NCBI RefSeq assembly: GCF_003052295.1
Contig: NZ_QBLC01000001.1
Coordinates: 372,001 to 436,000 of the forward strand
Origin: Trichococcus paludicola
Lineage (GTDB): Bacteria > Bacillota > Bacilli > Lactobacillales > Aerococcaceae
Length of the DNA: 64,000 nt
Reading direction: 5' to 3'
Positions 4,681-61,616 of this stretch are shown piece by piece (the first letter of the stretch is position 1; every line of letters begins with the position of its first letter). Under the pieces are notes generated by a model. The model was not told the origin of the DNA. It worked only from the letters and a program-made list of their open reading frames with translations, and did not search any database. Made by a program: the position numbers and the translations under genes.

Positions 4681-4946
4681 AAAAAATCCCTGTCCAGACA
4701 AGAAAATACTTGTTTGAACAGGGACGATAGTTACCGTGTTACCACCCAGCTTGCAGAATCATCCCGAAATCGGAAAGACTTTGCCACTCTGACATGTATC
4801 GTATGCCGACCGCTTATGCGCATAAGAAAGCTCCAAAGTGTAATTCGAATCCAGGCTTGCATCAGCTTCCACCAACCGCTGACTCTCTGAAGGACAAAAT
4901 CCCGATTCTACTGTCTTTTTCATCGCTTTTTATTGTATTGGTTAAT
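4681..4946 (-). promoter_or_regulatory. Tyrosine-specific T-box leader of tyrS
   Basis: On the minus strand the leader contains the hallmark T-box bulge GGGTGGTAACACGG (complement of 4734-4747), an AG-box-like AGAGAGTC early in stem I, and a candidate specifier codon TAC (Tyr) at 4842-4840 followed by A. The leader ends with a long terminator hairpin (GTCCCTGTTC with its partner, 4687-4724) and a run of Ts. Uncharged tRNA-Tyr would pair with the specifier and the T-box bulge to favour antitermination. The codon identity matches the downstream gene, which supports the call. Confidence 0.92.
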
Positions 4947-5154: not shown

Positions 5155-5251
5155 TCATTATGTTGATGAATCTTAAGGAAAACTATAAAAAGTTAAAAGA
5201 TATATAAGAATTATAACTAACTACAATCGAATGTAAGTGGAGGAATTAGAC

Positions 5252-6589
5252 TTGAAGAAGAAATTAGTGGCTATCGCATTAGCAGGTACGATCCTTGCAA
5301 CAAGTATAGTAACGCCTTTTACAGCGCAAGCAGATGAAATCTTAACCAAAATCCAACAGCAAGAAACAAAAATTTCTGAATTGGACAGCAAACAAAGTAC
5401 GGTAGAAGAAAACTTGTCTGCAATCACTGCAGAAGTTGATGCAGCCGAAAAAAGAGCAGAGACTTTATTGGCAAACCGCGTAAAGACACAAGATGAGATT
5501 GTTGCTTTACAAGAAGATATTGCCGAATTGCAAGTTGTCATCGCGCAACGCGAAGAGCAATTGGATGAACAAGCAAGATCTGTTCAAGTGAACGGTTCAA
5601 ACGAAAACTACTTGAACTTCATCGTATCATCAGAATCCTTCACGGATTTAGTATCCCGCATCGATGTTGTATCAAAAATGGTTTCTGCCAATAAAGAATT
5701 GGTAGAACAGCAAGTTGCGGATCAAAAAGCTGTTGAAGACAAGAAAAATAAAACAGAAGATAACTTAAACGAAATCAATGCAATGGCCATGGAGTTGGAA
5801 CAACTTAAAGGCGATCTGCAAGTGAAGAGAATCGAACAAGAAAGCGCAGTTGCCGCTTTGGCTGCTGAAAAAGCAACAGCTGAATCCGACCGTGAAATGT
5901 TCTTGGCACAAAAAGAAGAAGCTGATCAACGTGCTGCCGCAGAGGCTGCTTCCATTGCCGCCGCTGAAGCTGCCGCAGCTACTGTAGCTGCAACAGTCGC
6001 ACAAGCAAGTTCAGAAGAATCTTCTGCTGCTGCTTCATCCGTCGACATTGCATCAAGCACGGTTGCAAGTTCCGAGTCAGCAACAACTGCTAGCTCAGCT
6101 CCTGCTCAAACAGTTGCCGCTGCACCAGTTGTTGAGAGTGCACCAGTTGTGTCTGCTCCTGCAGCAGCTGCACCAGTCGTCAGCGCACCCGTTGTGGCTG
6201 CGCCAGTCGTGACTGCACCGGCATTATCAGCACCAACAGGCGATGTTGTTTCCATTGCTGCACAATACATCGGGGTTCCTTATGTATGGGGTGGAAAAAC
6301 ACCATCAGGCTTTGACTGCTCAGGCTTCACTTCTTATGTTTTCAGACAGGCATACGGCATCGAAATCGGTGGCTACACAGTTCCTCAAGAAAACTCAGGT
6401 ACGCAGATTGCTGTATCAGCCGCACAAGCGGGAGATTTGATTTTCTGGGGTTCAAGAGGCGCGACTTATCACGTAGCTATCTACGTAGGCGGCGGACAAT
6501 ACATCCACGCTCCAGCACCAGGCCAAACCGTTACTTATTCTTCTTACAACCTTTCCGGCGCATCATTTGCCGTACGTGTTGCAAGATAA
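5252..6589 (+). CDS. Secreted NlpC/P60 peptidoglycan hydrolase with coiled coil
   Basis: A 445-residue secreted cell-wall hydrolase. The start is TTG 5252, placed eight bases after GGAGG (5239-5243). The layout is: signal peptide of about 27 residues (KKK, hydrophobic core, TAQA cleavage region); a long coiled coil (about 28-215) like those of CwlO/PcsB proteins that dock on FtsEX; a low-complexity Ala/Ser/Val/Pro linker (about 215-330); and a C-terminal NlpC/P60 domain with the catalytic triad candidates C356 (in FDCSGF), H407 (TYHVAI) and H419 (YIHAP). It should cut D-gamma-Glu/diamino-acid bonds in stem peptides during growth or daughter-cell separation. FtsEX activation is inference from architecture. 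The gene is monocistronic, with a WalR-like site upstream and a terminator immediately after. Confidence 0.93.
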   Translation: MKKKLVAIALAGTILATSIVTPFTAQADEILTKIQQQETKISELDSKQSTVEENLSAITAEVDAAEKRAETLLANRVKTQDEIVALQEDIAELQVVIAQREEQLDEQARSVQVNGSNENYLNFIVSSESFTDLVSRIDVVSKMVSANKELVEQQVADQKAVEDKKNKTEDNLNEINAMAMELEQLKGDLQVKRIEQESAVAALAAEKATAESDREMFLAQKEEADQRAAAEAASIAAAEAAAATVAATVAQASSEESSAAASSVDIASSTVASSESATTASSAPAQTVAAAPVVESAPVVSAPAAAAPVVSAPVVAAPVVTAPALSAPTGDVVSIAAQYIGVPYVWGGKTPSGFDCSGFTSYVFRQAYGIEIGGYTVPQENSGTQIAVSAAQAGDLIFWGSRGATYHVAIYVGGGQYIHAPAPGQTVTYSSYNLSGASFAVRVAR

Positions 6590-6601
6590 TCCGAAATTCA
6601 C

Positions 6602-6628
6602 GACAGTCCTCCGGGGCTGTCTTTTTTT
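6602..6628 (+). terminator. Intrinsic terminator of the P60 gene
   Basis: GACAGTCC (6602-6609) pairs with GGGCTGTC (6614-6621, one G-U pair), followed by seven Ts. Confidence 0.85.
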
Positions 6629-6654
6629 GCATAATGTAGGAAAGAATAAAATTT

Positions 6655-6975
6655 CTGTACTCAAAAGTGCATCACCATAGGTGTTTCACAGGATAGCAAA
6701 ATGTTTCATGCGTCCCAAATTGTTGGCTAGCTTCACGGGTTAGCCCTTCGGAAAGGGTAAAGGAACCTCTTGTCTCTGCGAGCCAAGACATACTGTTCGA
6801 CTAACCTGCTGACGCAGGAAGTCTCTCAGCAATTGCGCTCTGCGATGCTCATTTGCATGGGACTCTTAGGGGTTCATCCCTTAGAGTCCCAGTATAAGGT
6901 GACCGTAGGGAACGTTGCGAGGCCAGATTTCCTAAATTTCTTTCAGGGCTGAACGAACCCGTTCAGCTTTTCTTG
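6655..6975 (+). ncRNA. Unassigned highly structured RNA region
   Basis: This is an intergenic stretch between the P60 terminator and the MerR promoter, with dense local hairpins and its own terminator. Visible helices are CACC/GGTG near 6673-6683, GGCTA/TAGCC (6725-6729/6741-6745), CCCTT/AAGGG (6744-6748/6753-6757, partly exclusive with the former), TGTCT/AGACA around 6771-6790, CCTGC/GCAGG (6805-6809/6814-6818), ATGC/GCAT (6845-6848/6855-6858) stacked directly on a 12-bp stem with one mismatch (6859-6871/6878-6890), and the terminator at 6948-6967. I compared it from memory with tmRNA, RNase P RNA, SRP RNA, 6S RNA, T-boxes and the common riboswitches; none of their signature sequences is present. 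No clear promoter was found, so it could be an independent small RNA. The plus-strand orientation follows from the terminator. Confidence 0.5.
6948..6975 (+). terminator. Terminator of the structured RNA region
   Basis: GCTGAACG (6948-6955), loop AACC, CGTTCAGC (6960-6967), then TTTTCTT. It is a perfect 8-bp stem that lies before the MerR promoter, so it ends a transcript that has no coding gene immediately upstream other than the already terminated P60 gene. Confidence 0.8.
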
Positions 6976-6987
6976 TACAGGAATCTG

Positions 6988-7018
6988 TTGACCTTGACGC
7001 AACGTCAAGGTGTATGAT
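6988..7018 (+). promoter_or_regulatory. MerR-type promoter with 19-bp spacer and palindromic operator
   Basis: A -35 TTGACC (6988-6993), a 19-base spacer and a -10 TATGAT (7013-7018). The spacer carries a perfect inverted repeat: ACCTTGACG (6991-6999) and CGTCAAGGT (7003-7011), separated by three bases. This is the hallmark of promoters activated by DNA distortion by MerR-family regulators, and the downstream gene is such a regulator, so autoregulation is very likely. Confidence 0.88.
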
Positions 7019-7040
7019 GAAATCATCGGAGGGGATAGGT

Positions 7041-7808
7041 ATGGAATACACGATCCAAAAATTGAGCCGGCTGGCCGGCGTAAGCACGCGGACGCTGCGC
7101 TTCTATGATGAAATCGGCTTGCTGAAGCCCAAACGCACCAGTTCCTCGGGCTACCGCATCTACGGTGAAGCGGAGGTAGACAGGCTGCAGCAGATCCTGT
7201 TCTTCAAGCAGCTGTCCTTTGCGCTTGATGAGATCAAAGCAGCGATGGATGACCCAGCCTATGACGCGGAACGATCGTTGGTCGCGCATAAACAGGCGTT
7301 GTTGGAGAAAAAGGCAGAAATCGAATTGCTGATCAAAACGGTCGAGGCTACGCTGGATGAAAAAAGAGGAGGAAAAAAGATGAGCGACAAAGAAAAATTT
7401 GAAGGCTTGAAAAGGGAACTGCTCGACGAGAACGAAAGCCGCTACGGGCAAGAGAACCGCGAAAAATACGGCGAAAAGACCATTAAGGCTTCAAACAAAA
7501 AATTTGCGGGAATGAGCGAAGCGGATTTTGACGCGATGCAGGAGCTGGCCGTGCGCCTGCAGGAGCTGCTGACCGAAGCGATGGCTACAGGGGATGCCGG
7601 CGGAGAGGCTGCCCTTGCGGTTGCTGCGCTGCATAAACAGTGGCTGAGCTACACTTGGCCGACGTACTCCACGGAAGCGCACCGCGGGCTGGCCCAGATG
7701 TATGTCGATGACGAACGGTTCACGGCATACTACGACAAAGCATCGGGCGAAGGGGCCGCCGCCTTTTTGCGGGATGCGATCCACAACTATACTGAAAAAG
7801 CTGAATGA
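7041..7808 (+). CDS. MerR-family regulator with TipAS ligand-binding domain
   Basis: A 255-residue transcription activator. Residues 1-70 or so form the winged-helix MerR DNA-binding domain (LAGVSTRTLRFYDEIGLL, SGYRIYGEAEVDRLQQI), followed by a dimerisation helix (about 75-110) and a C-terminal TipAS-like domain (about 120-255) of the type that binds thiopeptides or other large hydrophobic drugs. Start ATG 7041 follows GGAGGGG (7028-7034); an earlier in-frame ATG at 7014 falls inside the -10 element and cannot be in the mRNA. The promoter at 6988-7018 has the 19-bp spacer and perfect palindrome expected for self-activation. No transporter or resistance gene is adjacent, so the regulon is likely elsewhere or the protein acts by itself as a drug-binding sink. 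Confidence 0.9.
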   Translation: MEYTIQKLSRLAGVSTRTLRFYDEIGLLKPKRTSSSGYRIYGEAEVDRLQQILFFKQLSFALDEIKAAMDDPAYDAERSLVAHKQALLEKKAEIELLIKTVEATLDEKRGGKKMSDKEKFEGLKRELLDENESRYGQENREKYGEKTIKASNKKFAGMSEADFDAMQELAVRLQELLTEAMATGDAGGEAALAVAALHKQWLSYTWPTYSTEAHRGLAQMYVDDERFTAYYDKASGEGAAAFLRDAIHNYTEKAE

Positions 7809-61483: not shown

Positions 61484-61577
61484 TTCAATCGCATAAAGAT
61501 GAAACGTTCACTTTTAGATGAAATAGAGTGTTATGATGATGGGCTTGCTTCTGGCTTCCCTAGTCTAGCTCAAGGTT

Positions 61578-61616
61578 CTTCCGAAGATCGCATGATCTTC
61601 GGAAGGGCATTTTTTC
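61578..61616 (+). terminator. Terminator of the ribosomal supercluster
   Basis: CTTCCGAAGATC (61578-61589), loop GCAT, GATCTTCGGAAG (61594-61605), perfect 12-bp stem, then GGCATTTTTTC. Confidence 0.93.

What the first reader, a model, noticed from the sequence alone, without database searches (positions are those of the whole stretch)
6655..6975. Unassigned, densely structured terminator-ended RNA between a P60 hydrolase gene and a MerR/TipA gene
About 320 bases contain at least six local helices, including an ATGC/GCAT hairpin directly abutting a 12-bp stem (6845-6890), and end in a perfect terminator (6948-6967). The P60 transcript already has its own terminator at 6602-6628, and the MerR promoter begins after this RNA's terminator, so an additional transcript is implied. 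Signature sequences of tmRNA, RNase P, SRP, 6S, T-box, TPP, FMN, SAM, lysine, cobalamin, glycine and c-di-AMP RNAs are not present as far as I can tell by eye. Two helices (GGCTA/TAGCC and CCCTT/AAGGG) compete for bases 6744-6745, which hints at switching. This is the best candidate for something undescribed in the window.
Basis: partly seen in the sequence, partly recalled or inferred. Interest (0 to 1): 0.7.

Follow-up and report, generated by a model that had tools for sequence, protein, structure and literature searches.

The report
Small hopping DNA after a terminator
The "unassigned RNA" is one copy of a small, gene-less mobile DNA repeat that tends to land right behind transcription terminators, with relatives in other lactic acid bacteria; it hints at an unknown terminator-homing mover rather than a new regulatory RNA.

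Summary
Rfam has no match in the segment. But it is not a locus-specific RNA gene. It is one copy of a dispersed intergenic repeat, found in 13 of 13 Trichococcus genomes searched and absent from the P60-MerR site in all 12 congeners (11 with the site otherwise intact). The element spans about 6637-6972: a left segment plus a core whose ends pair. Across genera all 32 helix pairs show double changes, but G.T (38) and A.C (43) deviations are equally common, unlike tRNAs (32 to 0), so the symmetry looks kept at DNA level. Interior modules come and go: one site in three species holds three module sets. A covariance model matches 108 of 295 genomes of the order; genome G023 alone gives 143 matches. 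There, 35 of 40 checked copies begin within 4 nt of a terminator's T tract (control 19 of 800). Best reading: a non-autonomous, terminator-homing miniature insertion element resembling Efa-1/EFAR and BOX. What moves it is unknown.

The parts
6637..6972 (+). whole element, inferred ends (TAGGAAAG ... GCTTTTC)
   Evidence: left and right ends common to aligned copies; absent as a block from the same site in 12 congeners, 11 of them with the flanks intact
6637..6724 (+). left segment (TAGGAAAGAATAAAAT ... AAAAGTGCATCACC-GGTG ... ATGC), present in many but not all copies
   Evidence: alignment of copies; 26 other matches to a left segment in G001
6723..6972 (+). core; covariance model R1 match, 71.3 bits, the only one in the window at E <= 0.01
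6729..6747 (+). left arm of the end-to-end helix (AGCTTCACGGGTTAGCCCT)
   Evidence: helix with 20 of 32 pairs doubly changed in A1, 32 of 32 in A3
6945..6968 (+). right arm of the end-to-end helix (AGGGCT-gaacg-AACCCGTTCAGCT)
   Evidence: same
6948..6975 (+). terminator-like hairpin GCTGAACG-AACC-CGTTCAGC plus TTTTCTTG, sharing bases with the right arm
   Evidence: direct reading; formed in the RNA folds; not listed by the scan
6768..6823 (+). optional interior module: TCTTG/CAAGA hairpin (6768-6788) and GACT-CCTGC/GCAGG-AGTC hairpin (6799-6823)
   Evidence: replaced by a short linker in other copies
6845..6925 (+). optional interior module: ATGC/GCAT hairpin and stem 6859-6890
   Evidence: missing in the roughly 124-nt short cores
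6602..6628 (+). terminator of the NlpC/P60 gene, the landing site
   Evidence: kept in the empty sites of 11 congeners
5237..6589 (+). NlpC/P60 (PcsB-like) peptidoglycan hydrolase gene
   Evidence: Pfam NLPC_P60 4.2e-30, CC_PcsB 4.4e-26
7014..7808 (+). MerR/TipAS regulator gene; the sequence before it, with its palindromic likely promoter, lies after the element and is present in the empty sites
   Evidence: Pfam TipAS 3.6e-34, MerR_1 2.8e-19

Best explanation
The segment is one copy of a non-autonomous miniature mobile DNA element of Trichococcus. SHOWN: a multi-copy intergenic family; absence from the same site in the congeners searched; a covarying end-to-end inverted repeat; interior modules gained and lost; related elements in other Lactobacillales genera; left ends set at intrinsic terminators in the two genera where this was tested. 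INFERRED: an enzyme supplied in trans recognises the folded ends and inserts the element between a terminator's T tract and a following TTA, without duplicating the target. Landing behind a terminator, with an end that carries its own hairpin and T tract, keeps damage small and can leave a substitute terminator. The arms are probably kept matched by DNA copying across the hairpin. No regulatory RNA function is needed to explain it.
For: 33 matches in the own genome; 13 of 13 Trichococcus genomes; 37 left-end and 44 right-end motifs in complete genome G001. Absent from the P60-MerR site in 12 of 12 congeners, 11 with the site intact. Covariation: 20 of 32 pairs with double changes in a MAFFT alignment, shuffle mean 8.4; 32 of 32 in 113 distinct cross-genus rows, 95.0% of cells paired against at most 59.4% when slid. 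Wobble symmetry: G.T 38, A.C 43 in 99 distinct rows, the best 130 of 150, against 32 and 0 in 18 tRNAs. Terminator abutment: 35 of 40 against 19 of 800 in G023, within 4 nt; 24 of 38 against 20 of 760 in Trichococcus, within 14 nt (Fisher tests). One orthologous site with three module sets. A G001 copy whose interior is gone and whose arms form a perfect palindrome (L332). Recent spread in G023: 39 full elements found in 40 loci, 9 distinct sequences, one of them 12 times. An element 95.8% identical to a G023 copy in 11 E. faecium plasmids; the one read follows a T tract and precedes TTA. A second empty site in four congeners of G023, next to a ClpB/ClpC-type ATPase gene.
Against: No mover found. 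In G001 none of the 37 left ends begins a transposase-sized element (34 reach a right end at 59-440 nt, 3 are truncated or shrunken). In G023 140 left ends were counted but 100 listed; four listed ones without a listed core were read and are complete non-autonomous or decayed forms. Y1 transposase is missing from 3 of 9 element-bearing genomes, and an element lies within about 1.5 kb of only 2 of 12 Y1 genes. Target duplication is unsettled: a few copies (L028, L042, L084) show 7-8 matching bases, yet the best of 324 offset and length settings over 38 copies reached only z 3.2. In Trichococcus 14 of 38 copies failed the terminator test and in G023 5 of 40 (some of the failures look like terminators with larger loops). 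Orientation with replication (120 of 139 listed in G023, 26 of 37 in G001) may only reflect gene orientation.
Confidence: 0.9

Rival explanations
1. A stand-alone regulatory or structural RNA gene (or riboswitch-like switch) ending in its own terminator.
For: RNA fold z -3.94, core alone z -5.28, strong covariation, terminator-like 3' end and overlapping helices. The plus-strand RNA is the one form that prefers local hairpins with the terminator.
Against: Repeated through the genome; missing at this locus in 12 of 12 congeners; no promoter candidate; no G-U excess; interior modules freely lost.
Confidence: 0.05
2. A family of extra or bidirectional terminators kept by selection for stopping transcription between genes.
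For: Right end is a hairpin plus T tract; in G001 a lone right-end hairpin stands directly after a stop codon where the window genome has terminator plus element (L113 against L021). 20 of 57 copies lie between convergent genes by a crude ORF call.
Against: Most tested copies already have a terminator at the landing site; copies sit in all four gene contexts, 8 of 57 between divergent frames; an array lies between two same-strand genes of genome G059; presence differs between species.
Confidence: 0.15
3. A SINE-like RNA copied by a reverse transcriptase, such as that of a group IIC intron, which also inserts after intrinsic terminators.
For: Same landing preference as IIC introns (passages of PMC4424553); left end set after T tracts.
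Against: No group II intron family among the Rfam matches of the segment; wobble symmetry speaks against an RNA-level constraint. Co-occurrence with reverse transcriptases was not tested.
Confidence: 0.08

Closest known systems
Efa-1 / EFAR repeats of Enterococcus faecalis
   Same: Efa-1: intergenic, multi-copy, 163 nt, two adjacent stem-loops (passages of the tables and section 11 of PMC2267715). EFAR, recalled from a 2007 FEMS Microbiology Letters abstract that is not held here: 42-650 bp, variable assembly of sequence types, insertion at stem-loop sequences. That Efa-1 and EFAR are one family is my assumption.
   Different: No EFAR or Efa-1 sequence was at hand, so homology is untested. EFAR as recalled deletes most of the target stem-loop; here the P60 terminator stays whole.
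BOX elements of Streptococcus pneumoniae
   Same: Modular, ends paired with each other, interior module absent or repeated, over-represented between convergent genes, proposed to be mobile (passages of PMC3049150).
   Different: Host family and abutment to terminators; sequence relation not tested.
SPRITE (pneumococcal terminator-like repeat)
   Same: Repeat with a terminator-like structure near gene 3' ends (passages).
   Different: SPRITE is an 18-bp duplex with a long U-rich tract; this element is modular and pairs end to end.
Group IIC introns
   Same: Insertion at intrinsic terminators (passages of PMC4424553).
   Different: No intron family match in the segment.
Non-autonomous IS200/IS605 elements
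   Same: Apparent insertion without target duplication next to a short constant target (TTA), hairpin close to the end. The IS200/IS605 rules are recalled.
   Different: Y1 transposase not consistently present or linked.

Membership tests
Efa-1/EFAR | Short intergenic element in many copies | tested here: met
   33 matches in the own genome; 37 left-end and 44 right-end motifs in G001; few annotated as overlapping a called frame
Efa-1/EFAR | Variable assembly from interchangeable modules (recalled) | tested here: met
   three module sets at one site
Efa-1/EFAR | Stem-loop sequences as insertion targets (recalled) | tested here: met
   35 of 40 against 19 of 800
Efa-1/EFAR | Target stem-loop largely deleted on insertion (recalled) | tested here: not met
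   P60 terminator intact beside the window copy, as in the empty sites
Efa-1/EFAR | Sequence homology to E. faecalis copies | not testable with these tools
Stand-alone ncRNA gene | Own promoter | tested here: not met
   0 sigma-70-like sites in 6560-7060
Stand-alone ncRNA gene | Conserved at the locus in relatives | tested here: not met
   absent in 12 of 12 congeners
Stand-alone ncRNA gene | RNA-type covariation with G-U excess over A-C | tested here: not met
   38 against 43; small set A1 8 against 5; tRNA control 32 against 0
Known Rfam family | Match at gathering score | tested here: not met
Group II intron | Ribozyme core / domain V | tested here: not met
   no intron family among Rfam matches up to E 10
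Group II intron | Insertion after intrinsic terminators (class C) | tested here: met
IS200/IS605-type non-autonomous element | Y1 transposase present where the element thrives | tested here: not met
   absent in 3 of 9 genomes; element near 2 of 12 Y1 genes
IS200/IS605-type non-autonomous element | No target-site duplication | tested here: inconclusive
Classical TIR MITE | Target-site duplication of fixed length | tested here: inconclusive
   best z 3.2 over 324 settings
BOX | boxA/boxB/boxC sequences | not tested
   only the architecture was compared

The most novel reading that the evidence does not exclude
An order-wide superfamily of gene-less DNA elements in Lactobacillales homes to the 3' edge of intrinsic terminators and inserts cleanly, without target duplication, through an undescribed mechanism that reads a folded single DNA strand or the terminating transcription complex; EFAR-like repeats and the Trichococcus, g12 and g38 repeats are branches of it.
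Probability: 0.35. Interest if true: 0.65.

Novelty: new member of a known kind. Interest (0 to 1): 0.42.

Why it matters
It removes a false riboregulator candidate and replaces it with a testable picture of a terminator-homing repeat with relatives over much of an order. If the mover is found, it may explain how small repeats fill bacterial genomes while sparing genes. Counting G.T against A.C deviations is also a cheap general way to tell DNA palindromes from RNA genes where covariation alone cannot.

Tried and rejected
Rfam at gathering and permissive thresholds: nothing credible in the segment. A fixed-length target duplication: not supported. The TTA at the right end as the stop codon of a convergent gene in general: rejected, 3 of 41 G023 copies have a minus-strand frame of 60 or more codons stopping exactly there (flanks only about 300 bases). 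An autonomous parent: none among the 37 left ends of G001 nor the four odd left ends of G023 that I read, out of 100 listed and 140 counted. Y1 transposase as the mover: not supported. Window element in plasmids and phages: no match; units from L041, L230, L229 and L208 in plasmids: no match; L258 in phages: no match. An empty version of the E. faecium plasmid site: no record with both flanks and no element among the 15 found. My first view that the hits in genus g24 were false was wrong: 4 of the 6 hits in G060 carry the inner helix (GGAAAAAAGATAAATC ... ATTTCCTATTTTTC) but other ends; 37 further g24 genomes were not read. My first statement that only the bottom DNA strand folds end to end was also wrong and is mended below.

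Literature: 'EFAR' in the held library listed 15 papers, none opened, by title on other matters. 'Trichococcus, intergenic, repeat' listed 8 papers, none by title on such a repeat; one search listed 10 of 111. Searches found no paper. Seen: passages and section 11 of PMC2267715; passages of PMC3049150, PMC10969869 and PMC4424553; PMC2229807 was searched for four terms without a hit. Venditti et al. 2007 is recalled, not seen.

Full report
What was claimed and what is there. The helices named are in the sequence, including the overlap at 6744-6745 and the hairpin 6948-6967 with its T tract. The RNA fold is better than all 100 shuffles (z -3.94). Rfam has no credible match in the segment. Pfam confirms the two neighbours.

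It is a repeat. The segment has 33 whole or partial matches in its own 1.94-Mb assembly, estimated 63% complete, and matches in all 13 genomes of the genus searched; 3 of the other 47 genomes gave DNA matches, best E 3.1e-16. The genus is Trichococcus: the MerR orthologue is 95% identical in T. alkaliphilus. The complete genome G001 holds 37 left-end and 44 right-end motifs. The window holds one copy, model match 6723-6972.

It arrived by insertion. In 11 of 12 congeners the P60 terminator is followed directly by the sequence before merR, without the element. The twelfth, L065, also lacks the element, but the end of its P60 gene and the terminator are missing too. The inferred element is about 6637-6972: a left segment (6637-6724) and a core (6723-6972). 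Some copies lack the left segment; others are little more than the right-end hairpin.

Its structure. The core's ends pair with each other (6729-6747 with 6945-6968), with an internal mismatch and a bulge. Short cores of about 124 nt are one long hairpin; longer cores carry further hairpin modules. In a MAFFT alignment of 22 copies, including a second sequence type and units from genome G059, 97.4% of cells pair and 20 of 32 pairs show double changes (shuffle mean 8.4, at most 6 when slid). In 113 distinct cross-genus rows fitted to model R1 all 32 pairs do, with 95.0% of cells paired (a fitted alignment leans towards its structure).

DNA rather than RNA. If selection kept an RNA fold, G-U pairs should far outnumber A-C mismatches. 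Among 99 distinct rows (the best 130 of 150; the 20 weakest dropped) G.T is seen 38 times and A.C 43 times; in the smaller set A1, 8 and 5. In 18 tRNAs from the same loci the numbers are 32 and 0 of 395 cells (the tRNA finder may itself disfavour A.C). One G001 copy has lost its interior and its bulge, and its arms are a perfect palindrome (L332), as DNA copying across a hairpin would give. Folding is not neutral in this respect: the core as plus-strand RNA prefers two local hairpins, the right one being the terminator (z -5.28), while plus-strand DNA (z -4.31), minus-strand DNA (z -4.78) and minus-strand RNA (z -4.87) have the end-to-end fold as their best structure.

Modules move. One orthologous site in three species (L014, L048, L047), with the same upstream terminator and downstream flank, holds elements with three different interior module sets.

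Range. Model R1 matches 108 of 295 genomes and 24 of 74 genera drawn from the order. Of these, 38 genomes belong to genus g24; in G060, the one g24 genome I read, 4 of 6 hits carry the inner helix but not the usual ends. Several g38 genomes and others carry head-to-tail units of about 120 bp; one array, in G059, lies between a gene with a nitronate-monooxygenase/FabK-type domain and an acyltransferase (FabD-type) gene on the same strand (the names FabK and FabD are recalled).

Where it lands. In G023 the left end (TAGACTAGGGG...) follows a T tract and the right end (CTTTTC) is followed by TTA in 37 of 41 copies. A terminator-like hairpin with T tract ends within 4 nt of the left end in 35 of 40 copies, against 19 of 800 random upstream positions; in Trichococcus, within 14 nt, in 24 of 38 against 20 of 760 (Fisher tests). 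Other genera were not tested. At one G023 locus, beside a ClpB/ClpC-type ATPase gene, four congeners lack the element, one of them with other repeats there; the two flanks, read side by side, fit a clean insertion without duplication. The general duplication test is negative but not decisive. Orientation follows replication in 120 of 139 listed G023 copies and 26 of 37 in G001, as gene orientation alone might give.

Recent spread. 39 full G023 elements found in 40 loci fall into 9 sequences, one present 12 times. An element 95.8% identical to a G023 copy sits in 11 E. faecium plasmids; partial matches occur in one E. faecalis and one E. casseliflavus plasmid. In the E. faecium plasmid read, it again follows a T tract and precedes TTA.

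Mover. Not found. In G001 34 of 37 left ends reach a right end within 59-440 nt and the other three are truncated or shrunken. Y1 transposase is neither constant nor linked. Reverse transcriptases and other transposases were not tested.

Comparison. By architecture the closest described repeats are Efa-1 of E. faecalis (163 nt, intergenic, paired stem-loops; PMC2267715), which I assume to be the EFAR family, and pneumococcal BOX (PMC3049150). By landing site the closest are group IIC introns (PMC4424553), with which it shares no detectable ribozyme. It works like EFAR as I recall it, but one recalled feature (deletion of the target stem-loop) was not met and sequence homology could not be tested, so I do not file it as EFAR. 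I file it as a new member of the known kind 'modular miniature insertion element'.

Noticed in passing
window 4717-4932 (-): T-box leader (Rfam RF00230, 108.8 bits) upstream of a tyrosyl-tRNA synthetase gene (Pfam).
   Followed up: partly
window 61525-61604 (+): L17 downstream element (RF01708, 54 bits).
   Followed up: no
L113 against L021: In G001 a lone right-end hairpin directly follows a stop codon where the window genome has a terminator plus element: possible reuse as a terminator.
   Followed up: partly
L332 (G001:C1 about 1942006): Core without interior and without bulge: the two arms form a perfect palindrome.
   Followed up: partly
L195:7394-7994: Head-to-tail array of about 120-bp core units between two same-strand fatty-acid-type genes in genome G059.
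   Followed up: partly
NZ_CP116024.1 46789-46953 (L330:4001-4165): Element 95.8% identical to a G023 copy in 11 E. faecium plasmids, suggesting transfer between families.
   Followed up: partly
L231, L235, L243, L247 (genome G060, genus g24): Hairpins sharing the inner helix of the family but with different ends (TAGTATCTT-like).
   Followed up: no
Trichococcus cores of 242-252 nt: A frame open across the whole core (83 codons) in 6 of 16 copies, shorter in the rest; coding not tested.
   Followed up: no
L094: A partial element ending in the right-end hairpin directly followed by a complete element in tandem.
   Followed up: no
L065: In genome G007 the end of the P60 gene and its terminator are missing before merR; real deletion or assembly fault not told apart.
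   Followed up: no
L313, after the match end: AT-rich direct repeats (AAAACGTTCCAAT-like) fill the same intergenic site in genome G309.
   Followed up: no
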